Assembly: GCF_029360805.1 (NCBI RefSeq)
Contig: NZ_JARKNC010000010.1
Span: forward strand, 234,645 to 298,644
Length of the DNA: 64,000 bases
Direction of reading: 5' to 3'
Origin: Daejeonella sp. JGW-45
GTDB lineage: Bacteria; Bacteroidota; Bacteroidia; Sphingobacteriales; Sphingobacteriaceae
Positions within the stretch are counted from its first letter, which is position 1; every line of letters starts with the position of its first letter. The position numbers were made by a program, and so were the translations under genes. Shown in pieces: positions 781 to 64,000 of the stretch. The notes under the pieces were generated by a model. That model was given only the letters and a program-made list of their open reading frames with translations. It ran no database searches and was not told where the DNA came from.

Positions 781-890
781 AAAGGAATAAGGAACAGAGA
801 ATAAGGAACAAAGATTGAATAGTTTAACTATCCCTTTGATATGTTCATCTTCCGGTATGCAGTCCTTGCTCTTTACTCCTTACTCCCTTT
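781..890. repeat. Heptad stutter repeat, two inverted arms
   Basis: Arm 1 (781-815) reads as AATAAGG, AACAGAG, AATAAGG, AACAAAG with a 7-bp period. Arm 2 (861-890) is TCCTTGC, TCTTTAC, TCCTTAC, roughly the reverse complement of arm 1. Between them are ~45 bp without repeats. The element fills most of the intergenic space between the dienoyl-CoA reductase stop and clpS. Confidence 0.7.
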
Positions 891-903
891 TAGATTAATC
901 TGA

Positions 904-20611: not shown

Positions 20612-21787
20612 ATGTCATTATCCGATTTTTTGTCTCCTGTAAACTATACCACTCCGCAGAGCGGCTTCTATACCAGTCATCTCGGAGCAAAACTGGAGAT
20701 CTATCATTCACATTTTCCTGATCTGGAAAGTAATACCTATGATATTGCGATTATTGGGGTGCTCGAAGATCGTAATGCAGTCAATAATTCAGGTACTGCT
20801 TTATCTGCCGACTATTTTCGCGAGAAATTCTATTCACTTAACGAAGGGAATTACGCAACCAGGATAGTCGACCTCGGAAATATTAAGGCCGGCCACACTG
20901 TTTCTGATACCTATGTAGCGTTAAAGCTTGTCGTTGCCGAGCTGATAAAGAAGGATATCGTTCCGGTTATTATCGGCGGCGGGCAGGACCTGACCTATGG
21001 GCAGTTTATGGCTTATGAGGAATTGGAACAAAAAGTGGATCTGCTCGTGGTCGATTCGCACTTTGACCTCGATGATGATCCCCAGAATGTAAACGGTACA
21101 ACTTCAGCTTCGTATCTCAACAGGATCTTTCTGCATGAGCCCAATTATTTATTCAATTACAGCAATATCGGTTATCAGACCTTTTTCGTAAACCAGGAAA
21201 GCCTGAAGGTGATGGATAAGCTGTATTTCGATATTCACCGGCTTGGGGATGTTGCAAATAATATGACAACAGCAGAGCCGATCATTCGCAATGCTAATAT
21301 GATCAGTTTTGATATGTCTGCCATCCGCTCGTCGGATGCCGGAGCCAATGCCAATGCTTCTCCCAATGGTTTTTATGGAGAGCAGGCTTGCCAGATATGC
21401 CGTTACGCTGGGATGAATGATAAGCTTTCGTCGATAGGATTTTACGAGTTCAACCCAGCCTATGACCAGAACGGGCAGACAGCGTTGCTGCTCGCGCAGA
21501 TGGTCTGGTACTTTGTGGATGGCTTTTACAATCGTAAAAAGGAACACCCGCTGCTGCCGAAATCACAATATATTACTTATCGCGCAAGCCTTAAGGACGG
21601 CTCGCACGAATTGATCTTCGTGAAGAGCAAAAAATCAGACCGCTGGTGGATGCAGGTGCCTTACCCTACCGGCTTGTCCAAGAATGAACGCCATCACCTC
21701 GTTCCATGCCGGTATGAGGATTACCAGCTGGCGAATGCAGGTGAGATGCCGGATCTGTGGTGGAAGACGTATCAGAAACTTAATTGA
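20612..21787 (+). CDS. Ureohydrolase (arginase/formimidoylglutamase) family protein with altered metal motifs
   Basis: 391 residues from the ATG at 20612; an earlier in-frame start would add a hydrophobic stretch not expected for this cytoplasmic family. The family's metal motifs are recognisable but changed: GGGQDLTYGQ in place of GGDHS, VDSHFDLDDD for DAHxD, and SFDMSAIRSSDA in place of SFDxDxxDP. Thus at least one His and one Asp ligand appear replaced. Canonical members release urea or formamide from guanidino/formimino groups using two Mn ions. Such divergent forms are, as I recall, annotated formimidoylglutamase in Bacteroidota; activity is uncertain. Confidence 0.75.
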   Translation: MSLSDFLSPVNYTTPQSGFYTSHLGAKLEIYHSHFPDLESNTYDIAIIGVLEDRNAVNNSGTALSADYFREKFYSLNEGNYATRIVDLGNIKAGHTVSDTYVALKLVVAELIKKDIVPVIIGGGQDLTYGQFMAYEELEQKVDLLVVDSHFDLDDDPQNVNGTTSASYLNRIFLHEPNYLFNYSNIGYQTFFVNQESLKVMDKLYFDIHRLGDVANNMTTAEPIIRNANMISFDMSAIRSSDAGANANASPNGFYGEQACQICRYAGMNDKLSSIGFYEFNPAYDQNGQTALLLAQMVWYFVDGFYNRKKEHPLLPKSQYITYRASLKDGSHELIFVKSKKSDRWWMQVPYPTGLSKNERHHLVPCRYEDYQLANAGEMPDLWWKTYQKLN

Positions 21788-21947
21788 GTTGTACGTGGTA
21801 CGTTTTACGTTTTAAGTTCACGTGCTAACTCATAATTTTTTAAGAGATTGTTAACCTACAGCGTTTAGAAACTTACAACGTACCACGTAAAACTTACAAC
21901 TCAAAAGGCGTTTAGAAACTTACAACGTACCACGTAAAACCTACAAC
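21788..21947. repeat. Heptad stutter repeat with inverted arm and a 40-bp direct repeat
   Basis: The left arm 21788-21822 reads TTGTACG, TGGTACG, TTTTACG, TTTTAAG. The right arm carries its reverse-complement words (ACGTACC, ACGTAAA, ACTTACA). The right arm is itself duplicated: 21861-21900 and 21908-21947 are 40-bp copies with one mismatch, each starting GCGTTTAGAAAC. The element fills the gap between the ureohydrolase and xylB. Confidence 0.8.
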
Positions 21948-21951
21948 TAAT

Positions 21952-23430: not shown

Positions 23431-23514
23431 CCTCTCGGTAGGCCATAAAGGGCTGAGAGCTTCCCTTCGAGTAAGCCACCGTGTACTGATATCTTATATT
23501 TTAATTCAATGCCT

Positions 23515-23598
23515 GACCCGGAACGGGTTAAATGTTTGTAGAAGATATTTCTGGCCCCAAACGCGCCCCTGAAAGTGGTCGCATGTTTATAGCAATCG
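23515..23598. repeat. Two dispersed GACCC...GGGTC palindromic elements
   Basis: Element 1: GACCCG-gaa-CGGGTT followed by AAATGTTTGTAGAA (23515-23546). Element 2: GCCCCTGAAAGTGGTC followed by GCATGTTTATAG (23563-23598). Both have the layout of the units in the 60-61.5 kb array (small hairpin, then A/T-rich ATGTTTATAGAAAAT-like tail), but diverged. They lie between xylB and the toxin-antitoxin element. Confidence 0.6.
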
Positions 23599-25920: not shown

Positions 25921-26830
25921 CGCTCTTCCCCGATCAAGTCGGGGAAGAGCCCTGCGTCACGTCCACAAGTGTTGAGGAGGCTTTTAAGTCTGCAAAACTA
26001 TCATGTAAAACCAGGCACCATAACCCTGCATACGTTATTTACAGCTGCGCTGGACTTTTAAAACCCGCGTTATTTACATTCCTCGCCGGGCATTGCTGCA
26101 CATGCCCGCAGGAGGAATGTTTGGTGTGCACTCTTCCCCGACTTGATCGGGGATCTCGTTAATAACACGCGGCCAAAGCCGCAAGTGTTAACCGGGAGAT
26201 TAAGGTCGCGCAAAAGCTGCAAGCTATTTACAGCTGCGCTGGAGGTTTAGATTCCTGACATTCAAAGGCATTGTGAACGCGGGCTGCGCCGCGTCTGGGA
26301 GGAGATCCCCGATCAAGTCGGGGAAGAGCCCTGCGTCACGTCCGCAAGTGTTGAGGAGGCTTTTAAGTCTGCAAAACTATCATGTAAAACCAGGCACCAT
26401 AACCCTGCATACGTTATTTACAGCTACGCTGGACTTTTAAAACCCGCGTTATTTACATTCCTCCTGCGGGCATTGCTGTGCATGCCCGCAGGAGGAATGT
26501 TTGGTGTGCACTCTTCCCCGACTTGATCGGGGATCTCGTTAATAACACGCGGCCAAAGCCGCAAGTGTTAACCGGGAGATTAAGGTCGCGCAAAAGCTGC
26601 AAGCTATTTACAGCTGCGCTGGAGGTTTAGATTCCTGACATTCAAAGGCATTGTGAACGCGGGCTGCGCCGCGTCTGGGAGGAGATCCCCGATCAAGTCG
26701 GGGAAGAGCCCTGCGTCACGTCCGCAAGTGTTACGGAGCCTCTTAAGTCTGCAAAACTATCATGTAAAACGAGACACCATAACATGCTGTGTGCCCGCAG
26801 GAGATCCCCGACTAAATCGGGGACGAATTC
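25921..26830. repeat. Tandem array of a ~380-bp structured repeat (about 2.3 copies)
   Basis: The block starting TCCCCGATCAAGTCGGGG recurs at ~25927, 26306 and 26686 (spacing 379 and 380 bp). Two nearly identical full copies are followed by a partial, more diverged third. Each unit holds several hairpins. One stem reads CTCTTCCCCGA/TCGGGGAAGAG (25923-25949). Another in copy 2 is a perfect 19-bp stem around an 8-nt loop (26455-26500). The array fills the gap between the esterase and xylA and encodes no convincing protein. Confidence 0.9.
26455..26500. other. Perfect 19-bp hairpin in the 380-bp repeat
   Basis: ACATTCCTCCTGCGGGCAT (26455-26473) pairs fully with 26482-26500 around TGCTGTGC. The matching site in copy 1 (~26074-26120) has a damaged left arm. 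Confidence 0.85.
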
Positions 26831-29644: not shown

Positions 29645-30799
29645 ATGAGATACTTTAAATTAATCATATATCTGTTCCTTTTTACAGGCACGAATCCTGT
29701 TTTTGCACAGGGCGCTTCGTTCACTGTTAACGGTACTGTAGACCCAAGTCTGAATATTGAGACCGTGTACTTCAGTCAGGCCACCTTTATAAATAACACA
29801 TTTCAAAAATCTACCAGGATTCCGGTCGTCGGGGGTAAGTTCATTATAACAGGGACTCTCAAAGAACCCGGGCCGGGCTTGATCTCATTGGTAGAAGACC
29901 TTAAGCCCAAGAACCCTGCGGATATTAAGCAGTTTATTCTGGACAAGGGGATAATCAGCTTTACTGTGAAAGATAAACTGTCTTCAGCAGTGATCAGCGG
30001 ATCAAAAGCAAACGATGACATTGTAAAATATACAAGCGGTCAGGTGTCTTATGTGCAGAAGATCAATGCCCTTAATGAGATTGCAGACCAGCAATCCCGG
30101 CAGGGCGTGCCTATGGATTCGATCGTCAGCACCTACGGTCCGCTATTGAAAGATGCTTCCACCGAGCTCTACGGGTACCAGCGTTCATTCGTTACTCAGC
30201 ACCCATCAGCCTTTATATCTTTATTGCTGTTGCCGGAGATCGCGCGGTTTAACAGTAATTTCCTCGAAGCAGATTCTATTCTGGAAGGGCTTGACCTGGT
30301 TGTAAAGTCCAGCCCAACGGGAACTGCGATTAAAAACTATATCGGCGCGGAGAAGAAAACATCTGTGGGTGCCTTTGCACCTGAGTTTGCGGCCTCCGAT
30401 ACTGCCGGCAAGAAGTTTGCACTCTCGTCCCTGAAAGGGAAATATGTCTTGCTTGATTTCTGGGCAGCCTGGTGCGGACCCTGCCGTCAGGAAAACCCTA
30501 ATGTGGTTAAGGCTTATCAGACATATAAGGACAGGGGCTTTACCGTGCTTGGTGTCTCCCTCGACCGCGACCGCAAAGACTGGCTTAAAGGCATACGTGC
30601 CGACAACCTGACCTGGCCGCATGTGTCTGACTTAAAACACTTTGCAAGCCCTACAGCGGTGTTGTATAATATTACCAGTATCCCGAGGAATTTTCTTCTT
30701 GATCCGAAAGGAAAGATAGTAGCGAGAGATCTGAGGGGGGTGGATCTGCAGGAGAAACTGGAAGAAATCTTTGGAGAACAAGGAATCAGGAAAGAATAA
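29645..30799 (+). CDS. TlpA-like thiol-disulfide oxidoreductase with N-terminal DUF4369-type domain
   Basis: 384 residues from the ATG at 29645, giving the signal peptide MRYFKLIIYLFLFTG...VFAQ; an upstream in-frame start would place extra residues across a hairpin. The N-terminal ~90 mature residues (FTVNGTVDPSLNIETVYF, LKEPGPGLISLV) look like DUF4369. The C-terminal thioredoxin domain has FWAAWCGPCRQENP (CGPC near residue 277) and the cis-Pro region NITSIPRNFLLDPKGKIV. It should reduce periplasmic disulfides, for example in cytochrome c maturation or stress. The C-terminal residues EQGIRKE are encoded by the start of a heptad repeat element. Confidence 0.88.
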   Translation: MRYFKLIIYLFLFTGTNPVFAQGASFTVNGTVDPSLNIETVYFSQATFINNTFQKSTRIPVVGGKFIITGTLKEPGPGLISLVEDLKPKNPADIKQFILDKGIISFTVKDKLSSAVISGSKANDDIVKYTSGQVSYVQKINALNEIADQQSRQGVPMDSIVSTYGPLLKDASTELYGYQRSFVTQHPSAFISLLLLPEIARFNSNFLEADSILEGLDLVVKSSPTGTAIKNYIGAEKKTSVGAFAPEFAASDTAGKKFALSSLKGKYVLLDFWAAWCGPCRQENPNVVKAYQTYKDRGFTVLGVSLDRDRKDWLKGIRADNLTWPHVSDLKHFASPTAVLYNITSIPRNFLLDPKGKIVARDLRGVDLQEKLEEIFGEQGIRKE

Positions 30800-30930
30800 A
30801 GACTTTGCGTCTAATTTACAAACGGGCCTTAATCTTTGCTCTTTAATCTTTGCTCTTTAATCTTTGTTCTTTATTCTTTGCTCTTTATTCTTTGCTCTTT
30901 AATCTTTGTTCTTTATTCTTTGCTCCTGAC
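30776..30930. repeat. Heptad stutter repeat with inverted arms at a convergent gene end
   Basis: The left arm (30776-30800) includes the last codons of the TlpA-like gene. The spacer contains GCGTCTA (30807-30813). The right arm (30829-30930) is a long run of TTTGCTC, TTTAATC, TTTGTTC and TTTATTC with a strict 7-bp period, reaching the purD stop codon. The arms are imperfect reverse complements. Confidence 0.85.
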
Positions 30931-30931
30931 T

Positions 30932-32218
30932 CTACATGAGGTCCGCCCCAATATCCGCCCTGAAATACCTTGCATCAAAATAGATCCTTCCGGCATCAGC
31001 TGTAGCCGACTGGACAGCATCAAATAGATTATCCTGAAGAGAGGTTATCGCCATAACGCGGCCGCCGTTTGATTTCACGATCCCGTTTTCGAGTTCTGTG
31101 CCGGCATGAAAAGCTATAGAATGCCGCAGGTTATCCATACCGGTTATGGTTTTGCCTTTCATATATTCACCCGGGTAGCCCCCGGCAACAAGCATGATGG
31201 TGGCTGCGGTTTTAGGAGAAATTTTAAGCTCCTTATCGGCAAGATTTTCTTCGGCAACGCCTCTGAACAGTTCAACAAGGTCGCTTTCAATTCTAGGGAT
31301 GACGCTTTCAGTTTCCGGATCGCCCATGCGTACATTATATTCAATAACATAAGGGTCTTTTCCTTCAGGACTATGTGACGCCATCAGGCCTATGAAAATG
31401 AAGCCTTTATAAGGGATGTTGTCTTTTTTCAGGCCTTCAATGGTCGGGATAATGACACGCTCCTCCACTTTCTTCATGAAAGCTGCGTCTGCAAAAGGGA
31501 CAGGTGAGACAGAACCCATTCCGCCGGTGTTTAAGCCGGTATCACCTTCGCCGATTCTCTTATAATCTTTTGCTTCAGGAAGTATCTTGTAGGATTTTCC
31601 ATCTGTGAGTACAAAAACAGACAGCTCAATGCCGGTAAGAAATTCCTCTATTACAACCATGCTGCTGGCTTCGCCGAACTTTGCATCAGCAAGCATAGCT
31701 CTGAGCTCAAGCTTGGCTTCGCCGAGTGTTTCACAGATCAGAACGCCCTTACCCGCGGCAAGTCCGTCAGCTTTCAGAACAATGGGAAGTTTCTGGGTGT
31801 CGAGATAGGCCAGTCCTTGTTCGAGGGTATCAACCGTAAATGATTTAAATGCAGCCGTCGGGATGCCGTGACGGATCATGAACTGTTTAGAAAAATCCTT
31901 ACTTCCTTCAAGCTGTGCACCTTCCTGCTGCGGGCCGATAACCGGGATATGCTTTAATTCGGTTCTCTCAAGAAAGTAATCATGGATTCCCTTTACCAGC
32001 GGTTCTTCCGGTCCTACTACGACCATCGTGATGTTATTTTTAAGCACGAATGCTGCAATCGCTTCGAAATCGGTAGCTTTAAGGTTAACGTTCTTGCCAT
32101 AAGCACCAGTACCGCCGTTTCCGGGAGCTATGTAGAGCTTCGATAAAAGTGGGCTTTGTGCGATTTTGGATGCAAATGCGCTCTCGCGGCCGCCCGAACC
32201 AAGAAGGAGGATATTCAT
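30932..32218 (-). CDS. purD: Phosphoribosylamine-glycine ligase
   Basis: 428 residues, full PurD length. Typical blocks are MNILLLGSGGRESAFASKIAQS, VVGPEEPLVKGI, SKDFSKQFMIRHGIPTA, VLKADGLAAGKGVLI, EEFLTGIELSVFVLTDGK, NTGGMGSVSPVPF and EYNVRMGDPETE. It makes glycinamide ribonucleotide in purine synthesis, ATP-dependent, in the cytoplasm. TATGTTTG lies 4 nt before the ATG, suggesting a nearly leaderless mRNA. It is divergent from secA. Confidence 0.97.
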   Translation of the reverse strand: MNILLLGSGGRESAFASKIAQSPLLSKLYIAPGNGGTGAYGKNVNLKATDFEAIAAFVLKNNITMVVVGPEEPLVKGIHDYFLERTELKHIPVIGPQQEGAQLEGSKDFSKQFMIRHGIPTAAFKSFTVDTLEQGLAYLDTQKLPIVLKADGLAAGKGVLICETLGEAKLELRAMLADAKFGEASSMVVIEEFLTGIELSVFVLTDGKSYKILPEAKDYKRIGEGDTGLNTGGMGSVSPVPFADAAFMKKVEERVIIPTIEGLKKDNIPYKGFIFIGLMASHSPEGKDPYVIEYNVRMGDPETESVIPRIESDLVELFRGVAEENLADKELKISPKTAATIMLVAGGYPGEYMKGKTITGMDNLRHSIAFHAGTELENGIVKSNGGRVMAITSLQDNLFDAVQSATADAGRIYFDARYFRADIGADLM

Positions 32219-46514: not shown

Positions 46515-46520
46515 ATTGAG

Positions 46521-46550
46521 TTATACGTTTTACGTTGTAAGTTTTACGTT
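46521..46550. repeat. Heptad stutter repeat upstream of pgi
   Basis: TTATACG, TTTTACG, TTGTAAG, TTTTACG, TT: strict 7-bp period. The words are nearly those of the element at 21788-21947, 25 kb away. The remaining intergenic sequence to 46806 holds a small inverted repeat (AATACC...GGTATT, 46767-46781) and nothing else recognised. Confidence 0.7.
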
Positions 46551-46806
46551 CTGGACCCAGAGAGCTTAATACTTAACGTGATATTACGAAATCCGGTGCA
46601 ATTAATTGTAAAATTAGATGTATATCCATTAATTTGGATTTATTCCAAGCCAATCAAGTAGAAAGCGAACGTTGTGTTATGCTATCGGGCGGGAGCACAG
46701 TTATCGAATTATTAACTCGATGTTCCGGTATGGATTTGATGATTCGCTGATTAAAAATTTAGTGAAAATACCGATGGTATTAGCAGAAATTTAATGCCGG
46801 ACTACC

Positions 46807-49019: not shown

Positions 49020-50097
49020 ATGACCAAAGAAAACATTACGGATTTAAGAGACAGGATAACGTCTCTGAGGAGGCATCTTTGACATCGACAGGAAGTTAGA
49101 TGATCTCAGGAACGAGCAGGATATAGCACTCCGGCCTGATTTCTGGGACGACCCGAAAGAAGCTGAAAAAGCACTGCACTCAATAAATACTAAAAAGAAG
49201 TGGACCGACGAATTCGAGGAGGCAGAGGCATCTGTCGAAGACGCTGCCGTTATGCTCGAATTTTTCCAGTCGGGCGATGCCACAGAAACAGATCTGAAAG
49301 AACAGTACGAAACTTCCCTTGCTAAGGTCGAGGAGCTGGAGTTTAAGAATATGCTCAGCTCTGAAGAAGACCAGTTAAATGCCGTTATGCAGATCACGGC
49401 TGGTGCCGGCGGGACAGAGAGCTGCGACTGGGCTTCCATGCTCCTGCGGATGTATATCATGTGGGGAGAAAAGCACGGCTTTAAAATAACAGAGCAGGAT
49501 TACCAGGAAGGCGATGTTGCCGGAATCAAAACCGTCACCATTCAACTGGAAGGCAGCTTCGCCTATGGTTACCTGAAAGGAGAGAATGGTGTGCACCGTC
49601 TGGTAAGGATCTCACCGTTCGATTCAAATGCCAAACGCCATACCTCGTTCGCATCTGTGTACGTCTACCCGCTGGTTGATGACACCATTGAGATTGACGT
49701 TAATCCATCTGATATTGAATTCGAGACTTTCCGTTCGGGCGGTGCCGGCGGACAAAATGTAAATAAGGTTGAAACAGCCGTACGGCTTTATCACAAGCCC
49801 TCAGGAATTATTATCAAGAACCAGGAATCGCGCTCGCAGTTGCAAAACAAAGAGAATGCAATACGTTTATTGAAATCACAGCTTTATGAGATAGAAATGC
49901 GGAAACGCCGGGAAGCCTCTGCAAGCATTGAAGGAAGCAAGAAGAAGATCGAATGGGGATCTCAGATCCGCAACTATGTGCTGCATCCTTACAAGCTGGT
50001 AAAAGACCTCCGGACTAACTATGAAACCTCCAACGCTCAGGCTGTACTCGATGGTGACCTGGATGAGTTCCTTAAGTCTTATTTGATGGAGTTTTAG
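49020..50097 (+). CDS. prfB: Peptide chain release factor 2 with programmed +1 frameshift
   Basis: Translation starts at ATG 49020 and runs 20 codons to an in-frame TGA at 49080-49082. The site CTT TGA C is preceded by AGGAGG (internal Shine-Dalgarno), the classic autoregulatory RF2 frameshift signal. After +1 slippage the frame continues at 49081 (GAC) to 50097, giving ~358 residues. The SPF stop-codon recognition tripeptide (ISPFDSN) is near residue 197 and the GGQ motif ([12 protein letters not shown]) near 242. It releases peptides at UGA and UAA. A conventional ORF call starting at 49252 would miss the N-terminus. Confidence 0.95.
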
Positions 50098-50100
50098 AAT

Positions 50101-50219
50101 GGAGTAAGGAGCAAGGAGCAAAGAGCAAAGAACAAAGAGCAAAGAGCAAAGAACAAGGAGCAAAAATTTATTAATAACGTTAGTCCTTCATCTTTAATCT
50201 TTGCTCCTTTATCTACTCC
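50101..50219. repeat. Heptad stutter repeat hairpin between convergent genes
   Basis: The left arm (50101-50165) is a series of AAGGAGC, AAAGAGC and AAAGAAC with a 7-bp period. The right arm (50187-50219) is CTTTAATC, TTTGCTCC and TACTCC, largely its reverse complement, and covers the last codons of the SirB1-like gene. It lies between prfB and that gene and may act as a terminator-like hairpin. Confidence 0.85.
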
Positions 50220-51097
50220 GGTTCCGGAAATATCCTAAGCAGCTCCTGTAATTCCTCTACTTTATCTAAAGCTGAAAGCTTTTCATAGGCACTGATCAGA
50301 TTCCGCAGTACGCGCTGAATAATGTCGACATTGGTACAAGGTTCATAAAAATGCTGGTTGGCTTTCAGGTTGAGTTGTTTTAAAAAAGCATCCACATCTT
50401 TACGGCCGAATATAAAGCCCTTATTAAAAGCGTTGATATAAAACAGGATACGGTCTTCGAATTCTTCCTTCTGCACTTCGATGCTTTCCGACGGGCTTTC
50501 ATCTACATAGGCAAGTATAAAATGCTGCGGCAGGTTAACGCCGTATATGGGAATATCAAGCTTTTGTGCAATGATGGAATAGATCACCGCCAACAAGATC
50601 TGATTCCCTTTCCTGCTTTCCAGTACCTGGCTTAGATAAGAGTTTTGCGGATCCTGGTGGTTCGTGGTGTTACCGGTAAAGCCGTGGATACTATAGAGCA
50701 CATGGTTAATTAGCTTTACTTTTTCAACCGCACTCATCTCGTAGACCATTTGCATCCAGATATCGCGTTTAATATCCTCTAACTGGTTGACAACTTTCTG
50801 CTCATCCAGGTCGGGATATTGGTATTTGTTAACTATCAGTATGCCCTGCAAAAGATCGAAAGCGCCTCCAATATACCATAGCTCAAGCTCTCGTTTTACA
50901 TTCAGGAACTGGATCTTGTGAACCAGGTTTTCTATCCGTTCCTGCAGCACCGTGTCAAGCGATTGCGCCCATGCACTTTCGAGCTGTTCAATCACATCAT
51001 TCCCGTATGATAACAGCTTTTGCTCTACATGATTCGCAATCTCCAGGTCCGGATCATCCAGTAACTTGATCAGCGATTCTATTTCTTTATCGTTCAT
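50213..51097 (-). CDS. SirB1-like transglutaminase-superfamily protein
   Basis: 294 residues from the ATG at 51097; the longer open frame upstream has no family similarity. The N-terminal ~90 residues are helical (LIKLLDDPDLEIANHVEQKLLSYG). The central domain resembles SirB1/transglutaminase-like proteins: NSYLSQVLESRKGNQILLAVIYSIIAQKLDIPIYGVNLPQHFILAYVD, with His in LPQHF, followed by FGRKDVDAFLKQL. The C-terminus is TPR-like. No clear nucleophilic Cys is seen at the expected site (GNQILLA), so it may lack catalysis. Cytoplasmic. Confidence 0.8.
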   Translation of the reverse strand: MNDKEIESLIKLLDDPDLEIANHVEQKLLSYGNDVIEQLESAWAQSLDTVLQERIENLVHKIQFLNVKRELELWYIGGAFDLLQGILIVNKYQYPDLDEQKVVNQLEDIKRDIWMQMVYEMSAVEKVKLINHVLYSIHGFTGNTTNHQDPQNSYLSQVLESRKGNQILLAVIYSIIAQKLDIPIYGVNLPQHFILAYVDESPSESIEVQKEEFEDRILFYINAFNKGFIFGRKDVDAFLKQLNLKANQHFYEPCTNVDIIQRVLRNLISAYEKLSALDKVEELQELLRIFPEPE

Positions 51098-51127
51098 GGC
51101 GTGGCCTAAATTAAAAAAAAATGTTGC

Positions 51128-51230
51128 ATGGAGGCGAGAAGTGAGATACCAGACGTTTATCGTTATATCAAAGCGGTTTATTCTCACATCTCACTTCTCG
51201 TTTCCCGCTTCTCGTTTCTCGCTTCTCCTC
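51128..51230. repeat. Heptad stutter repeat hairpin in a divergent promoter region
   Basis: CGAGAAGTGAGAT (51135-51147) and ATCTCACTTCTCG (51188-51200) are perfect reverse complements. The right arm continues as TCTCACT, TCTCGTT, TCCCGCT, TCTCGTT, TCTCGCT with a 7-bp period to 51230. It occupies the space between the SirB1-like and O-methyltransferase genes, just before the latter's promoter box. Confidence 0.85.
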
Positions 51231-51232
51231 AC

Positions 51233-51240
51233 TATCTTTG
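51233..51240 (+). promoter_or_regulatory. Bacteroidota -7 element (TATCTTTG) for the O-methyltransferase gene
   Basis: TATCTTTG, CCTT, ATG: the same 4-nt spacing as at clpS, purD and prfB. Confidence 0.45.
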
Positions 51241-51244
51241 CCTT

Positions 51245-52030
51245 ATGATAAACCTGCGGTTAGCAGCCGATTATTTAAAACATCGCTTGACATCCAAAAC
51301 CCGTCACGGTGTGCATTCGCCCTTCGCATACCATCTGGTTGATAAAGTTATTTACGACTTTCATGCCAAACCGGATTACTTCACTATCGAAGAATTGAGG
51401 ACTGAACTGCTTACCGATGCACGGACTATCAACATCACAGACCTCGGTGCAGGTTCTCATGTCAACAATAATAAACAAAAACAAGTAAGAACGCTGGCCA
51501 AAAATGCACTCAAACCTGCGCGGCTTGCCCAGCTCATACACCGGCTTGCGGTTAATGCAAACCCCGGCAACATAATCGAGCTCGGAACCTGCCTGGGAAT
51601 AACCACAGCCTATTTAGCAACCGCAGCACCTGACGCCCAGGTGATAAGCATTGAGGGCTGTCCCGAAACAGCTGCGATCGCTGAAGACAACCTTTCCAGG
51701 CTCGGAATAAAAAATACCGGTCTTCTGGTAGGCAATTTCGACCAGGTCTTGCCCGGCGTCGTAGAGATGCTGCCGAAGCTGGACTTCGTCTTTATTGATG
51801 GCAATCATCGGAAACAAGCTACACTGGATTATTTTCACTGGTGCCTGCCCAAGCTTAGCGATAATTCCATAATGATATTTGACGATATCTATTGGAGCCG
51901 GGGAATGAAAGAAGCCTGGGAAGAGATCAAAGCCCACCCGGAGGTGACAGTTACTATCGATCTTTTTTGGATCGGGTTGGTGTTTGTCAGGAAGGGACAG
52001 GCGAAGGAGGACTTTCGGATTAAATTTTAG
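51245..52030 (+). CDS. Class I SAM-dependent O-methyltransferase
   Basis: 261 residues from the ATG at 51245, chosen over the longer frame because a TATCTTTG box lies 4 nt before it and the extra residues derive from a heptad repeat. After a helical N-terminus (KTRHGVHSPFAYHLVDKVIYDF) the SAM-binding motif is NIIELGTCLGITTAYLATA, followed by VISIEGCPETAAIAEDNL and DFVFIDGNHRKQATLDYF. This matches caffeoyl-CoA/catechol O-methyltransferase-like enzymes. Substrate unknown. Confidence 0.88.
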   Translation: MINLRLAADYLKHRLTSKTRHGVHSPFAYHLVDKVIYDFHAKPDYFTIEELRTELLTDARTINITDLGAGSHVNNNKQKQVRTLAKNALKPARLAQLIHRLAVNANPGNIIELGTCLGITTAYLATAAPDAQVISIEGCPETAAIAEDNLSRLGIKNTGLLVGNFDQVLPGVVEMLPKLDFVFIDGNHRKQATLDYFHWCLPKLSDNSIMIFDDIYWSRGMKEAWEEIKAHPEVTVTIDLFWIGLVFVRKGQAKEDFRIKF

Positions 52031-52125
52031 AACTGAAAGCTGAAAACTGAAAGATGAGAACTGAAAACTGAAAACTGAAGTGCGGCGTCTAGAAATTTTC
52101 AGTTTTCAGTTTTCACCTTTCAGCT
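52031..52125. repeat. Heptad stutter repeat hairpin between convergent genes
   Basis: The left arm (52031-52080) runs GAAAGCT, GAAAACT, GAAAGAT, GAGAACT, GAAAACT, GAAAACT. The spacer contains GCGTCTA (52085-52091). The right arm (52097-52125) is TTTCAG, TTTTCAG, TTTTCAC, CTTTCAG and ends at the stop codon of the D-aminoacylase-like gene. The arms can form a long stem. Confidence 0.9.
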
Positions 52126-53713: not shown

Positions 53714-53743
53714 GATTAATACAATTACGGGCTTTGAGCTGTC

Positions 53744-53853
53744 AGGTATCAGCTTACCATTCAAATATATAATTTAAGTTTTGATTCAATCAGTGCAGAA
53801 GTTCGTGTTATATCGGCCCCAGACCTGATACCTCAAACCTGATACCTCATAGC
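53744..53853. repeat. Heptad stutter repeat with short inverted arm
   Basis: The right part 53823-53853 reads ACCTGAT, ACCTCAA, ACCTGAT, ACCTCAT (7-bp period). AGGTATCAG at 53744-53752 is the reverse complement of CTGATACCT. It lies between the D-aminoacylase-like gene and the next serine hydrolase gene. Confidence 0.7.
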
Positions 53854-55130
53854 TAATCTTGGATCGCCCCGTACGCCAGCGCCCTGAACTTTTCAATCAC
53901 TTCATTGTGCGTTCTTGCCTGCATCTGGCGGTAGATCAGGAGCACCATTTTTTCCTTGGGATCAACCCAATACGATGTTCCGAAAGCACCGCCCCAGCCG
54001 AAGGTGCCAACCTGTGCAGGCGCGCGCCCGCTGCTTTTTTCGGTAACGATCTGGAAGCCCAACCCGAACTTATCATCATTGCTGATGCTCACTTCTCCAA
54101 CCTGGTTTACTGTCATCATTCTTACGGTATTGCGTGCCAATATTCTTTTGCCATTATATTCACCGTTGTTTAGCAGCATTTGCAGAAATATGGCGTAATC
54201 ATAAATGGTAGAGCTTAAGCCTGCGCCTCCGGAAAAGTAGGTCGTTTTCTCAAGCGGATAGGCTGGGGTGACTGGTCCATTAAGCATCTGAGCACTCGCC
54301 TTGACTAGAGTACCATCCGGCTTTTCCGTATAAAGATTCACCAGCCTGGCTGCTTTGGCCTGGGGTAAATTAAAATAAGTGTCCTTCATTCCCAGGGGTT
54401 CGAAGATCCGGGTGCGGAAAAACTCGTCGAGGCTAAGACCTGATACCACTTCCACTAACGCACCTAAGACGTCAGTATTCAATCCGTAGGTAAATCTTTC
54501 ACCCGGCTGATGCATCAGCGGTAGCTTGCCGAGCCGTGACATCGCATCCTGCAGGCTGGCGTCACGCATACCGATCCCCGCAGTGAGATTGCTTTTTGCA
54601 TAAATGGCATTTGCTTCTCTCGAACCGATCTGAGCATAACCGATGCCGGAAGTATGTGTCAGCAAATCTTTAATGGTGACTTCCCGCTTCGCCGGTTCTG
54701 TAGTATAAGTTGTGTCGGCGGGATTAAATTTCACCAATACTGACTGCCCCTTAAATGAAGGGATATATAATGAAACAGGATCACTAAGAAGTAATTTTCC
54801 TTCATCGAAAAGCATCATGATAGCTACGCTGGTGATAGCCTTGGTCTGCGAGGCGATCCTGAAGATGCCATCCCTGGGCATGGGCGTTTTTGTGCCCAGG
54901 TCATTATAACCTGCCGCCTTATAATAGGCCACTTTACCGTTGCGTACGATCAATGCCGATGCGCCATTCAGGTAGCCCTTGTCTACCCACTCGTTCATTG
55001 CCGCATCAATGCGTTTCAGACGTTCTGACGAGAAGCCTGCAGCTTCAGCTGTCGATGTTGTAATGACCTGGCCAAAAGCGCTAAGCGCTCCGGCAACCAC
55101 AAATAAGATCGATAATATATTTCTTTTCAT
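53853..55130 (-). CDS. Class C beta-lactamase-like serine hydrolase (exported)
   Basis: 425 residues with a signal peptide ending SAFGQ. The SxxK nucleophile is SQTK at 94-97 (RIASQTKAITSVAIM), the YxN-type motif is in FTYGLNTDVLGALVE, and GGGFS-like GTFGWGGAFGTSYWVDP is near the end. The family includes penicillin-binding-like esterases, D-aminopeptidases and class C lactamases. It lies in a minus-strand run with another serine hydrolase and a D-aminoacylase-like enzyme. The exact substrate is unknown; antibiotic resistance is not implied. Confidence 0.88.
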   Translation of the reverse strand: MKRNILSILFVVAGALSAFGQVITTSTAEAAGFSSERLKRIDAAMNEWVDKGYLNGASALIVRNGKVAYYKAAGYNDLGTKTPMPRDGIFRIASQTKAITSVAIMMLFDEGKLLLSDPVSLYIPSFKGQSVLVKFNPADTTYTTEPAKREVTIKDLLTHTSGIGYAQIGSREANAIYAKSNLTAGIGMRDASLQDAMSRLGKLPLMHQPGERFTYGLNTDVLGALVEVVSGLSLDEFFRTRIFEPLGMKDTYFNLPQAKAARLVNLYTEKPDGTLVKASAQMLNGPVTPAYPLEKTTYFSGGAGLSSTIYDYAIFLQMLLNNGEYNGKRILARNTVRMMTVNQVGEVSISNDDKFGLGFQIVTEKSSGRAPAQVGTFGWGGAFGTSYWVDPKEKMVLLIYRQMQARTHNEVIEKFRALAYGAIQD

Positions 55131-59333: not shown

Positions 59334-59353
59334 AACCCGATAGCTATCGGGTT
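59334..59353. repeat. 20-bp perfect palindrome
   Basis: AACCCGATAGCTATCGGGTT is a perfect palindrome. It directly abuts the heptad tract at 59354. Confidence 0.8.
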
Positions 59354-59388
59354 GAAAGTTGAAAGTGGAAAGTTGAGAGTTGAAAGTG
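59354..59388. repeat. Heptad stutter repeat upstream of the BamA/TamA-like gene
   Basis: GAAAGTT, GAAAGTG, GAAAGTT, GAGAGTT, GAAAGTG: five exact 7-bp units. Confidence 0.85.
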
Positions 59389-59608
59389 GCTGGGTGGAGG
59401 GCCGTATTGCTATTCCGTCCAAATTTAAGCACAATGCTAATTTTTCACTAACTTAAAGCTGGTGCATTACAGTCAGGTTTCAAATCCCCAATGGTAATCG
59501 CTTCAGAAAAAGATGATCATGACCGGCCAGTCGCAGGTAACTCCGGTCTGGTTCCCACACAGCAAAAGAATACTAACGAACCATTATAAACAATCAAAAT
59601 CAAATCCT

Positions 59609-60167: not shown

Positions 60168-61460
60168 TTCGACCCTGAAAGGGTCATATGTCATAGAAAA
60201 TCATCCTTTCCGTTTTCCCGACCCCGAAGGTTGGTCGTATGTGACAACTGGATCATATCATTAAATCCATTGAAACATATTCATCCTTAAATTCAATATC
60301 AAAGCTATTTAAAGGAATCCGGTGTATGGGAATTAGTTGACGGGTTGACTATTGAAGCAGGTTTATAACTCTCGGCACACATGCGACCGCCTTCGGGGTC
60401 GGAAAAAATCCTTGAATTATTTCTATAAATATTTGACCCCTCCGGGGTCATGGCTGCTTCGGGCAGCTCACAGCCTGCTCCCAAATCCCCCCCGCTGCCC
60501 TTGTCATCCCCTCGAAGGCGGGGACCTCAAGCACGTCTTCCTCCTAAGTCTTACATTACCTCGTCATCCTGCCAAACCGGCCCTCCACATCTCCTAGCTC
60601 CCTTCGACCCTGAAAGGGTCATATGTTATAGAAAATCATCCTTTCCGTTTTCCCGACCCCGAAGGTGGTCGTATGTGACAACTGGATCATATCATTAAAT
60701 CCATTGAAACAAATATTCATCCTTAAATTCAATATCAAAGCTATTTAAAGGAATCCGGCGTATGGGAATTAGTTGACGGGTTGACTATTGAAGCAGGTTT
60801 ATAACTCTCGGCACACATGCGACCACCTTCGGGGTCATGGCTGCTTCGGGCAGCTCACAGCCTGCTCCCAATCCCCCGCTGCCCTTGTCATCCCTGCGAA
60901 AGCAGGGACCTCAAGCACGTCTTCCTCCTAAGTCTTACATTACCTCGTCATCCTGCCAAACCGGCCCTCCACATCCCCCAGCTCCCTTCGACCCTGAAAG
61001 GGTCATATGTTATAGAAAATCATCCTTTCCGTTTTCCCGACCCCGAAGGTGGTCGTATGTGACAACTGGATCATATCATAAAATCCATTGAAACATATTC
61101 ATCCTTAAATTCAATATCAAAGCTATTTAAAGGAATCCGGTGTATGGGAATTAGTTGACGGGTTGACTATTGAAGCAGGTTTATAACTCTCGGCACACAT
61201 GCGACCACCTTCGGGGTCGGAAAAGATCCTTGAATTATTTCTATAAACATTTGACCCCTCCGGGGTCATGGCTGCTTCGGGCAGCTCACAGCCTGCTCCC
61301 AAATCCCCCCGCTGCCCTTGTCATCCCCTCGAAGGCGGGGACCTCAAGCACCTTTTCCTCCCGGTCTTATATGATATTTTTACATGCGACCGCCTTCGGG
61401 GTCGGAAAAAATCCTTGAATTATTTCTATAAACATTTGACCCCCTCCGGGGTCATGGAAG
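60168..61460. repeat. Tandem array of 384-435-bp palindrome-rich repeats (three copies plus a partial)
   Basis: Copies begin TTCGACCCTGAAAGGGTC at 60168, 60603 and 60987, with spacings of 435 and 384 bp. Copy 2 lacks ~49 bp between two GGGGTC motifs, consistent with recombination between short repeats. Each unit contains several mini-hairpins: GACCCT-gaa-AGGGTC, GACCCC-tc-CGGGGTC, GCTGC-ttcgg-GCAGC, and in copy 2 CCCTGC-gaaa-GCAGGG. A/T-rich flanks of the type TTTCTATAAACAT recur. A partial copy runs to ~61460. Open frames inside are repeated by-products, not genes. Confidence 0.9.
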
Positions 61461-61884: not shown

Positions 61885-62339
61885 TGCCTGTTTTCGATTT
61901 GGCTGACTTCAAAATTGGGACCAGCATCTCCGAAATATTTCTAAACCACCTTCTAGTGTTCTCCTTCGTACCTTCTTTGTCTATTATTGCCCTGGCGCTA
62001 GCTAAAATGGGGTTGGAGACGAACAAAAGACGAAGAAGGTACAAACAAAACCCCTTTTTTAGACTATTATTAATTTTAGTTCATAAACGGCCAGACAACC
62101 ACGCTTGTTCCAGTTTTCGGTCCACTATGCCTATTCCGTCAAGAAGCCCTTTCCGGTTTCCTGCCTCCGTTTCCGACCCCTGACTTCCGACCCCCGACCT
62201 CAAGTGTCTCATACCGTTTCATACCGATTCAATTCGTGTCAATTCGTTCCAAAATTTCAAGTCCCCGACACTTCTCCCCACGTTTGTGCTGTACATGTAC
62301 AACAGTATATTTTTTTTAAACCCTTTAAAATTTGAAACA
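61885..62339. other. 455-bp gap with short periodic repeats
   Basis: GTACCTTCTT (61968-61977) and AAGAAGGTAC (62033-62042) form a 10-bp inverted repeat. At 62170-62199 is a 7-bp-period tract (TTTCCGA, CCCCTGA, CTTCCGA, CCCCCGA). At 62209-62248 are four 10-bp units (TCATACCGTT, TCATACCGAT, TCAATTCGTG, TCAATTCGTT). A 99-residue frame (61884-62183) is open but has low-complexity, repeat-derived sequence and is not called. Confidence 0.5.
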
Positions 62340-63041: not shown

Positions 63042-63410
63042 ATGGAACTCATTCAAAAATATTTTCTTCCCGCACACTTTCCCATGAGAAAGGAGCTTGC
63101 GGCTATTATTGTGATCATCCTGATCTTTTTGCTTTATCCTTACTTCATCCGTCAGATCGATATAACGGCGGCAGCGATCGATCCCGGGGTCTACAGCGCG
63201 GTGATCCTGGCGGTCTCAGCCCTGCTGATCTTCAAAGCCGCCACCTGGTGGATCATCAAAGCTATCTGGCCGGTATTTGCGAGCTATTCAGAACATCACT
63301 TCGAAGCGAACTTCAGATCGCTTACTGCAGGTCAGAAAGTAGTGATCTATCTGGGATTTTATTTGGTGATACTATTTGGATTTATTGAGGTGCTGGAGGC
63401 GGTGGTGTAG
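63042..63410 (+). CDS. Small membrane protein of unknown function
   Basis: 122 residues from the ATG at 63042. Three hydrophobic helices are visible: LAAIIVIILIFLLYPYF, GVYSAVILAVSALLIFKAATWW, and VVIYLGFYLVILFGFIEVL. The loop between helices 2 and 3 holds FASYSEHHFEANFRSLTAGQK. It does not match a family I can name; holin-like or accessory membrane roles are only guesses. It follows the DUF6266 gene by 57 bp beyond a terminator. Confidence 0.6.
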   Translation: MELIQKYFLPAHFPMRKELAAIIVIILIFLLYPYFIRQIDITAAAIDPGVYSAVILAVSALLIFKAATWWIIKAIWPVFASYSEHHFEANFRSLTAGQKVVIYLGFYLVILFGFIEVLEAVV

Positions 63411-63467
63411 GGAAACGGGAAGCGAGAAACGAGAAATGAGAAATGGGAAGCGGGAAACGAGAAAAGG
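63411..63467. repeat. Heptad stutter repeat (GAAACGG type)
   Basis: GAAACGG, GAAGCGA, GAAACGA, GAAATGA, GAAATGG, GAAGCGG, GAAACGA, GAAAAGG: eight exact 7-bp units. It is followed by TTCCACAAGGCG (63470-63481), the same 12-mer that follows the heptad tract in galK. Confidence 0.9.
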
Positions 63468-63487: not shown

Positions 63488-64000
63488 GCATTCTTCCCCG
63501 ATTTAGTCGGGGATCTCGTCAACGACACGCGGCTGCCGCCGCAGTGTTGGCTGGGACATTAAGCTCTACAAACAGAAATTACAGCTATGCCGGAGCTTTG
63601 ATTTCCGATACATTGAAATACCTCGGCGGGCATATGCTGCGCATGCCCATGAGGAGACCCCTGATCAAGTCAGGGGAGAATACCCCCGCCACCTACGATT
63701 AAACGTTGCGAGTGCAGCGCGGTGAGACTCTTCCCCGATTTAGTCGGGGATCTCGTCAACGACACGCGGCTGCCGCCGCAGTGTTGGCTGGGACATTTAG
63801 CTCTGCAAACAAAAATTACAGCTATGCTGGAGCTTTGATTTCGGATCATTGAAATACCTCGGCGGGCATATGCTGCGCATGCCCATGAGGAGACCGCTGA
63901 TCAAGTCAGGGGAGAATACCCCCGCCACCTACGATTAAACGTTGCGAGTGCAGCGCGGTGAGACTCTTCCCCGATTTAGTCGGGGATCTCGTCAACGACA
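63488..64000. repeat. Tandem array of a ~237-bp structured repeat, running off the window
   Basis: CTTCCCCGATTTAGTCGGGG begins at 63493, 63730 and 63966 (spacing 237 and 236 bp). Units contain CCCCGA...TCGGGG and GCATATGCTGCGCATGC-type hairpins. The order of motifs (TCGGGGATCTCGT, ACACGCGGC, GCCGCAGTGTT, ACAGCTATG, GGAG) parallels the 380-bp array at 25921-26830 although the sequences have diverged. No convincing gene is present. Confidence 0.88.

What the first reader, a model, noticed from the sequence alone, without database searches (positions are those of the whole stretch)
50101..52125. A family of 7-bp-period stutter repeats with a different word at each locus and inverted arms
Three successive intergenic regions (50101-50219, 51128-51230, 52031-52125) each hold a degenerate tandem repeat of exact 7-bp period (AAAGAGC; TCTCGTT; GAAAACT types), and in each an inverted arm lets the tract fold into a long hairpin. 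The same grammar recurs at 781-890, 21788-21947, 30776-30930, 46521-46550, 53744-53853, 59354-59388, 62170-62199 and 63411-63467. Period and layout are kept while the word changes, so this is not ordinary copying of one element. Heptanucleotide short tandem repeats (STRR) are known from cyanobacteria; I know of no established description of such a locus-specific inverted system here. A slippage/template-switch process or selection for hairpin gene ends are both possible.
Basis: partly seen in the sequence, partly recalled or inferred. Interest (0 to 1): 0.75.

Follow-up and report, generated by a model that had tools for sequence, protein, structure and literature searches.

The report
Seven-base repeat hairpins at gene ends
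In this bacterium, a relative of Daejeonella, some of the gaps between genes carry a stuttered seven-base word, often mirrored so that it is predicted to fold into a hairpin; at matching gaps of related species the word often differs while the layout stays, so the repeats likely serve as two-way stop signals for transcription that are likely remade by copying slips.

Summary
In 864 kb of this genome the strict scan finds 42 lag-7 stutters (35 intergenic), none at lags 4, 5, 6 and 8, none at lag 7 in shuffled sequence. The three core gaps fold into long hairpins; four of the other eight listed places neither show a matching inverted arm nor fold. 'A different word at each locus' is too strong: 70 loci use 45 words where about 66 are expected, and D. 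lutea shares the vocabulary. The grammar is striking: the left half is the more G-rich in 32 of 33 convergent and 49 of 59 tandem tract gaps; tracts are commonest between convergent genes (30/86; tandem 59/334, divergent 7/127), often abutting stop codons. The convergent gap after prfB carries tracts, in several words, in 10 of 24 distinct sequences; 8 of the 14 others hold a strong hairpin. Best reading: gene-end hairpins, likely bidirectional terminators, reworded by 7-nt slippage; a neutral origin is nearly as likely. Similar placement is published for one-word heptads in Xanthomonas and Nostoc (PMC4692102): a many-word variant of a known kind.

The parts
50092..50167 (+). left arm tract, GAGCAAA/GAACAAA type, about 8 units, abutting the stop codon of the release-factor gene (prfB)
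50184..50218 (-). right inverted arm (TTTGCTC type), reaching the stop codon of the convergent Transglut_core2 gene
   Evidence: (71% complementary over 35 nt), fold
51130..51147 (+). left arm, GCGAGAAGTGAGA type, in a divergent gap
   Evidence: 89% complementary
51180..51233 (-). right arm tract, TTCTCGT/TTCTCGC type, about 6-7 units, next to TATCTTTG at 51233-51240 (promoter-like by a recalled Bacteroidetes consensus)
52024..52079 (+). left arm tract, AACTGAA type, 7 units, abutting the methyltransferase stop codon
52096..52128 (-). right inverted arm (TTTTCAG type), overlapping the stop codon of the convergent amidohydrolase gene
   Evidence: (88% complementary over 33 nt), z -5.7
21784..21818 (+). 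left arm, GTTGTAC/GTTTTAC type
   Evidence: 83% complementary over 35 nt
21869..21948 (-). two successive right arms (direct copies) of the same type
30775..30802 (+). short left arm, GAACAAG/AAAGAAT type
   Evidence: 15 nt, 93%
30829..30932 (-). long right tract, about 14 units of TCTTTGC/TCTTTAA/TCTTTGT/TCTTTAT
53726..53752 (+). left arm, CAGGTAT type
   Evidence: 70% complementary over 27 nt
53820..53858 (-). right tract, ACCTGATACCTCAA type
782..891 (.). weak tract pair (AAGGAAC / TCCTTAC)
   Evidence: fold z -3.2; no inverted pair passed; only the right part passes
46516..46553 (-). single tract (GTTTTAC type) without inverted arm
59345..59391 (+). single tract (GTTGAAA type) without matching inverted arm
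63407..63467 (+). single tract (GAAACGA type) without inverted arm, overlapping a mechanical ORF

Best explanation
These are stretches of a seven-base word beside genes, often mirrored across the gap, which are predicted to fold into hairpins, likely work as two-way transcription terminators (gene-end boundaries), and are likely lengthened and reworded by polymerase slippage in 7-nt steps. Shown: the period, the G-first/C-last polarity, the preference for convergent gaps and stop codons, the match between the arms of one gap, and different words at several orthologous gaps. Inferred: termination, slippage as the source, and selection that keeps a hairpin in the gap. Proposed mode of work: the left arm is C-poor and mostly purine-rich and the right arm is its G-poor mirror, so RNA from either strand gives a purine-rich 5' arm followed by a pyrimidine-rich 3' arm, as in known bidirectional terminators (established knowledge). 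A hairpin of repeats tolerates slips because the arms still pair one unit out of register, which would let length and word drift.
For: Tract frequency in gaps of 60-400 bp: convergent 30/86, tandem 59/334, divergent 7/127; convergent vs divergent p 5e-8, vs tandem p 0.001; stable when 60-150 nt are trimmed from each mechanical gene start (convergent 27/70 to 31/86, tandem 51/294 to 59/334, divergent 7/113 to 8/127). Polarity: left half more G-rich in 32 of 33 convergent and 49 of 59 tandem tract gaps (50-400 bp), against 32:34 and 155:115 in gaps without a tract. Edges: 49 of 89 lie within 10 nt of a stop codon (in convergent gaps the nearer stop); of 75 tandem tracts 34 reach within 10 nt of the upstream stop and 19 within 10 nt of the downstream mechanical start. 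The gap after prfB: 24 distinct short gap sequences, 10 with tracts of several word types; 8 of these 10 and 8 of the other 14 fold at z -4.5 or lower against mononucleotide shuffles. Arms of the same gap match better than arms of different genomes (mean 17.0 vs 10.8; permutation p 0.0015). Compact hairpins in 22/60 tract-free and 5/28 tract-bearing convergent gaps (p 0.09: suggestive only). Period 7 and its multiples dominate.
Against: No RNA-level signature: in tandem hairpins G-U/U-G mismatches 41 against A-C/C-A 31 (p 0.29). Only 49 of 160 tracts had a clear inverted arm; by gap 47 of 101. With arms chosen by alignment the polarity is weaker: 20:3 tandem, 16:6 convergent. The low rate in divergent gaps holds for size-matched gaps only: over all gaps up to 900 bp, starts trimmed, it is 37/164 convergent, 68/808 tandem, 14/162 divergent, so convergent enrichment is robust but avoidance of divergent gaps is not. 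Tandem polarity shrinks as starts are trimmed (35:17 at 120 nt, 24:26 at 150 nt); convergent polarity does not (25:2). In the arm comparison only 2 of 11 genomes matched their own second arm best, because relatives share words. Two of the 10 tract-bearing prfB gaps do not fold better than shuffles (L071, L081), and two tract-free ones lack any hairpin (L063, L067). The window's divergent gap 51128-51230 has a good hairpin (and is not among the 7 of 127, since mechanical ORFs cover it). The consensus scan found terminator-like sites no more often than in shuffles (24 vs 19.7+-4.7) and named none of the tract hairpins, though it allows only loops of 3-8 nt. No expression data.
Confidence: 0.43

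Rival explanations
1. Neutral by-product: 7-nt polymerase slippage, with occasional inverted copying, lengthens intergenic DNA; selection only removes it from coding regions and promoters, which leaves more of it at gene 3' ends.
For: Strong excess of period 7; no G-U excess; variation spread over the phases of the unit, no conserved core; 111 of 160 tracts without a clear inverted arm; patchy presence among relatives (20-kb samples); over all gaps, divergent and tandem rates are alike. Promoter avoidance could explain a divergent deficit, as the authors of PMC4692102 argue for their repeats.
Against: It does not by itself explain the G-first polarity (32:1 and 49:10), the convergent excess over tandem gaps, or why arms match within a gap. 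A mirrored order of unit variants, expected from direct arm-to-arm copying, was not seen once edges were trimmed.
Confidence: 0.38
2. A dispersed mobile or copied element (REP, REPIN or MITE-like) spreads these words between loci and species.
For: Words recur between loci and between species more than chance; GAGATNT x3 is in 45 of 121 family genomes, up to 109 places in one.
Against: No shared loop or constant end was seen by eye in the gaps read; no Rfam match in the window; word changes at orthologous gaps while layout stays. Empty-site and target-duplication tests were not run.
Confidence: 0.08
3. Arrays of binding sites for a protein or RNA-binding regulator, as proposed for TAACTGA repeats in Beggiatoaceae.
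For: A related word (AACTGAN x3) is present in 17 of 247 Bacteroidia genomes.
Against: Many words, no conserved core phase (observed 466, null mean 504), placement nearer stop than start codons.
Confidence: 0.07
4. G-quadruplex elements, as proposed for GGGAATC repeats.
For: G-rich strand polarity resembles the published rule (PMC4692102).
Against: Only 5 of 160 intergenic tracts could form a G3 quadruplex; 34 of 160 have four GG runs.
Confidence: 0.02

Closest known systems
GGGAATC (Xanthomonas) and GGGGA(C/T)T (Nostoc) heptad repeats, PMC4692102 (sections 10, 13, 15 and 16 read, other passages seen)
   Same: Intergenic 7-nt units; [quoted passage not shown] overlap with stop codons; few between divergent genes; inverted pairs (70 and 75 cases) in the two Xanthomonas genomes; length and sequence variation between sister species.
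   Different: One quadruplex-capable word per lineage there; only a few inverted pairs in Nostoc; convergent gaps hold just 11-16% of the repeats there. Here many words, 5 of 160 tracts quadruplex-capable, convergent gaps favoured, and word replacement at orthologous gaps.
TAACTGA repeats of Beggiatoaceae, cyanobacteria and five Bacteroidetes, MacGregor 2015, PMC4679880 (abstract, passages and section 10 read)
   Same: 7-nt intergenic units; one-base neighbours of TAACTGA occur in this genome and TAACTGA in relatives; that paper notes other heptamer repeats nearby in Bacteroidetes and indels in 7-nt increments in Cyanothece.
   Different: There mostly just upstream of start codons in the main genome and almost only direct (169 direct sets, one indirect); here nearer gene 3' ends and often inverted.
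Long simple sequence repeats with heptanucleotide excess (Mrazek 2007, seen only as cited in PMC4679880 and PMC4692102) and cyanobacterial STRR (recalled)
   Same: [quoted passage not shown] a polymerase-contact explanation was proposed.
   Different: No inverted, gene-end grammar or word turnover is described in the passages I saw.
Bidirectional intrinsic terminators (established knowledge)
   Same: Hairpin between convergent genes, purine-rich 5' arm and pyrimidine-rich 3' arm on both strands; ordinary hairpins occupy the same gap in several tract-free relatives.
   Different: Stem made of 7-nt repeats, long, unstable in sequence, 21-72 nt between the arms at the window loci taken as longest pairs; T-tail not demonstrated.

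Membership tests
Heptad repeats of the Xanthomonas/Nostoc kind | 7-nt tandem units, mainly intergenic | tested here: met
   42 strict lag-7 tracts, 35 intergenic, 0 at lags 4, 5, 6 and 8
Heptad repeats of the Xanthomonas/Nostoc kind | G-rich strand begins next to a gene; inverted pairs | tested here: met
   left-G 32:1 and 49:10; 46 of 49 inverted pairs G-first; weaker by another arm choice, 20:3 and 16:6
Heptad repeats of the Xanthomonas/Nostoc kind | unit GGGAATC or GGGGAYT, quadruplex-forming | tested here: not met
   5 of 160 tracts quadruplex-capable; many words
TAACTGA repeats | arrays of TAACTGA | tested here: not met
   AACTGAA and other words in this genome; TAACTGA units seen in some relatives
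TAACTGA repeats | placed just upstream of start codons | tested here: not met
   edges cluster at stop codons; of 75 tandem tracts 34 reach the stop, 19 the start
Intrinsic bidirectional terminators | hairpin between convergent genes | tested here: met
   not for all tracts
Intrinsic bidirectional terminators | T-run after the stem | tested here: inconclusive
   consensus scan names none of the tract hairpins but counts only loops of 3-8 nt
Intrinsic bidirectional terminators | ends transcripts | not testable with these tools
   no RNA data
REP/MITE mobile repeats | one conserved palindromic core copied to many sites | tested here: not met
   words differ between loci; no Rfam match in the window
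REP/MITE mobile repeats | target-site duplication or empty site | not tested
   not run

The most novel reading that the evidence does not exclude
A word-independent grammar of bacterial gene ends: in at least three phyla, 7-nt stutters start with their G-rich strand at a gene edge and are often mirrored across the gap, whatever the word. Neither copying of an element, nor quadruplexes, nor a binding site explains that; a common 7-nt step of the replication machinery feeds hairpin-shaped gene boundaries whose sequence is free but whose shape and strand polarity are kept.
Probability: 0.28. Interest if true: 0.8.

Novelty: new variant of a known kind. Interest (0 to 1): 0.56.

Why it matters
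The excess of heptanucleotide repeats in bacteria has had only hypotheses for an explanation in the papers I read. Here many words obey one placement and polarity rule, and single orthologous gaps show the word being replaced while the layout stays. That separates the grammar from the word, argues against the quadruplex reading of the closest precedent as a general cause, and gives a concrete test system (D. lutea, 25 tracts per 100 kb in the 400 kb examined) for whether bacteria build terminators from slipping repeats.

Tried and rejected
Conserved core inside the unit (binding site): not supported; 94 arrays, 88 with variation, observed 466 vs null mean 504. Mirrored order of unit variants between arms (direct arm-to-arm copying): looked significant, but this came from degenerate edge units; after trimming 23 better vs 19 worse, p 0.17, and against reversed order 20 better, 12 worse, 15 equal; not claimed. 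RNA wobble signature: not found. Loss of the hairpin nuclease SbcCD as the permissive cause: SbcD (TIGR00619) has no match in this genome, but tract-rich G001 and G012 have it; by my hand count, genomes with at least 5 hits of the two patterns are 9 of 43 with SbcD over the cut-off and 25 of 78 without (p 0.21). Quadruplexes: 5 of 160. Known RNA family: none in the window at gathering scores. Locus-specific words: rejected within the genome.

Controls and dropped rows. Genes are mechanical longest ORFs of at least 100 aa (90), so starts are uncertain; one search shows what trimming them does. Shuffles are first-order Markov resamples (20, one per segment and setting). In one search both arms of a hairpin can count, so the 49 are not independent; a further control there, direct matches of the tract in its own flanks, gave 35 of 160 at the same score. 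In one search the position-polarity count keeps only tracts covering less than 60% of their gap and sets 9 central ones and 2 balanced ones apart. One search counts gaps of own, D. lutea, G009, G019 and G002 stretches and sets aside 9 gaps with weak tracts only; its divergent gaps lean G-left even without tracts (72:42) and are 5:2 with tracts. Fold z-scores are against 60 mononucleotide shuffles. In one search, 110 loci were searched and 65 had the convergent pair; 37 of these have gaps above 600 bp and no tract and were left out of the hairpin comparison; four more rows repeat a gap sequence under a second id. The arm comparison includes L072, which has no tract by threshold. The own/D. lutea gap table comes from adjacent reciprocal best hits in the fetched stretches only. 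In one search short inverted repeats in tract-free convergent gaps are purine-first 16:3 but only 11:7 G-first, in tract gaps 12:0 G-first.

Literature: searches and 55 of the open PMC library only. I found no description of this many-word gene-end system in Sphingobacteriaceae in their listings; subscription papers and preprints were not searchable. Of PMC4060949 I saw passages only; they hold no 'heptanucleotide'.
Full report
Where it is. The window is C2:234645-298644 of a 4.1-Mb genome in ten contigs. The genes around the core are a release factor (PCRF and RF-1 domains; prfB by my reading), a Transglut_core2 protein, a methyltransferase and an amidohydrolase.

The observation. The three core tracts are as described; four of the eight other places are single tracts or weaker, without arm or fold. 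In window intergenic DNA lags 7, 14, 21 and 28 stand out. In 864 kb of the genome the strict scan gives 42 lag-7 tracts (35 intergenic), 34 at lag 14, 15 at lag 21 and 7 at lag 28, but none at lags 4, 5, 6 and 8; lag 11 gives 7; shuffled sequence gives none at lag 7. With a looser threshold 73 intergenic lag-7 tracts stand against 1 in shuffled intergenic sequence, with 1 at lag 8 and 14 at lag 11. D. lutea has 83 strict tracts in 400 kb, against at most 6 at any other lag from 4 to 13.

Words. In 70 own word-loci I count 45 distinct words (rotation and strand ignored) where letter-shuffled words give 66 (minimum 61 in 500); 28 of 85 D. lutea loci use a word of the own list, against 9 expected (maximum 17). 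Single patterns are widespread: AACTGAN x3 in 17 of 247 Bacteroidia genomes, TTTNNTC x3 in 52 and GAGATNT x3 in 45 of 121 family genomes. Reversed controls are near zero for GAGATNT; for TTTNNTC some low-count genomes have as many control hits. So there is a shared vocabulary, not a private word for each locus.

Grammar. (1) Polarity. Among tracts covering less than 60% of their gap, those in the left part are G-rich on the + strand (40 vs 3), those in the right part C-rich (47 vs 7). By gap, the left half is the more G-rich in 32 of 33 convergent and 49 of 59 tandem tract gaps, against 32:34 and 155:115 in gaps without a tract. This rule reads the same on both strands. The tandem figure weakens when mechanical starts are trimmed, which moves the midpoint into coding sequence; the convergent one does not. 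G-oriented tracts hold only 10% C. (2) Inverted arms. 49 of 160 intergenic tracts have a clear inverted arm nearby, against 12 when the flanks of another locus are used; 46 of the 49 are G-first. Choosing arms by alignment gives 20:3 (tandem) and 16:6 (convergent). (3) Place. Tracts occupy 30/86 convergent, 59/334 tandem and 7/127 divergent gaps of 60-400 bp. The convergent excess also holds over all gaps up to 900 bp (37/164 against 68/808 and 14/162), where tandem and divergent gaps are alike. 49 of 89 tract edges lie within 10 nt of a stop codon.

Orthologous gaps. Of 34 conserved gaps between the own and D. lutea stretches, 5 have tracts in both (all in the window), 3 in the own genome only and 26 in neither. 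At 50098-50212 the own word is GAGCAAA and that of D. lutea GTATCAA; at 52031-52123 AACTGAA and GTTGACA; at 21788-21951 and 53765-53852 the words differ too; at 30800-30931 they are alike. The prfB gap was found in 65 of 110 loci; 28 rows (24 distinct sequences) have a short gap. Ten of the 24 carry tracts: GAGCAAA or GAGCAAG (own, G009), GTATCAA (D. lutea), GAGATNT (G001, and G023 of another genus), CAAGANC types (G006, G011), AGGTAAA (G021) and composite arrays (G016, G008). Eight of these ten fold at z -4.5 or lower; of the 14 without tracts, 8 hold a strongly folding ordinary hairpin (z -5.4 to -7.9), and 6 a weak one or none. Arms of one gap match each other better than arms of different genomes on average, but relatives with similar words match across, so only 2 of 11 match themselves best. 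In the divergent gap next to the methyltransferase, several relatives share an ATCTCAN word with different numbers of units, while the own genome and D. lutea have TTCTCGY: words are inherited for a while and then drift.

Mechanism. The convergent preference, the strand-symmetric polarity, the stop-codon anchoring and the occupation of a gap where several relatives have a hairpin favour a bidirectional gene-end function, most simply termination. Dominant period 7, mixed unit variants and gradual word change along arrays favour slippage in 7-nt steps as the source. Against the functional half: no G-U excess, many tracts without a clear second arm, and no hit of the simple terminator scan. A neutral model is therefore kept close behind. 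The arm-copying model was tested by unit order and not supported.

Known ground. PMC4692102 (sections 10, 13, 15 and 16 read; passages) reports for GGGAATC in Xanthomonas and GGGGAYT in Nostoc that repeats lie close to the gene on the 5' side of the G-rich strand, include repeats overlapping stop codons, are under-represented between divergent genes and, in Xanthomonas but rarely in Nostoc, form inverted pairs; in Xac RNA data, transcripts start or stop more often at quadruplex-capable repeats than at control repeats. That is much the same grammar with one word. Here only 5 of 160 tracts can form a G3 quadruplex, so quadruplexes cannot be the general cause of the polarity. PMC4679880 (abstract, passages and section 10) describes TAACTGA repeats, including some Bacteroidetes with further heptamers. 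I therefore call this a new variant of a known kind: many words, one grammar.

Noticed in passing
window 25927-26783 and 63492-64000: Long tandem duplications (380-bp unit, 2.3 copies, 97%; 236-bp unit, 2.2 copies, 97%) whose units both carry a CCCCGAT..AGTCGGGGA palindrome.
   Followed up: no
window 60434-61454, also 23514-23530: Several near-identical small hairpins TGACCCC..GGGGTCA followed by AATNTTTATA, and GACCCTGAAAGGGTC twice: perhaps a dispersed palindrome.
   Followed up: no
own genome, 864 kb sampled: A second, smaller excess at period 11: 14 intergenic tracts vs 0 shuffled with the looser threshold.
   Followed up: no
whole genome G000: No SbcD (TIGR00619) match at E 1e-3, although 13 of 14 control genomes match; present over the cut-off in congeners G001 and G012.
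   Followed up: partly
G016, G002 and G008 prfB gap (L071, L073, L081): Higher-order repeats: blocks of roughly 70-105 bp, each containing heptad tracts, duplicated two or three times in one gap.
   Followed up: no
G009, G019 and G006 convergent gaps (G009 gap 11): Another hairpin type, with ends like GTCATTCCGAAGG or TGTCATCCTGAACG and their mirror, sits beside heptad tracts.
   Followed up: no
prfB gap in 37 of 65 loci, mostly named Pedobacter (between L115 and L190): The prfB-Transglut_core2 gap is over 600 bp, mostly about 920 bp, perhaps with an extra gene between them.
   Followed up: no
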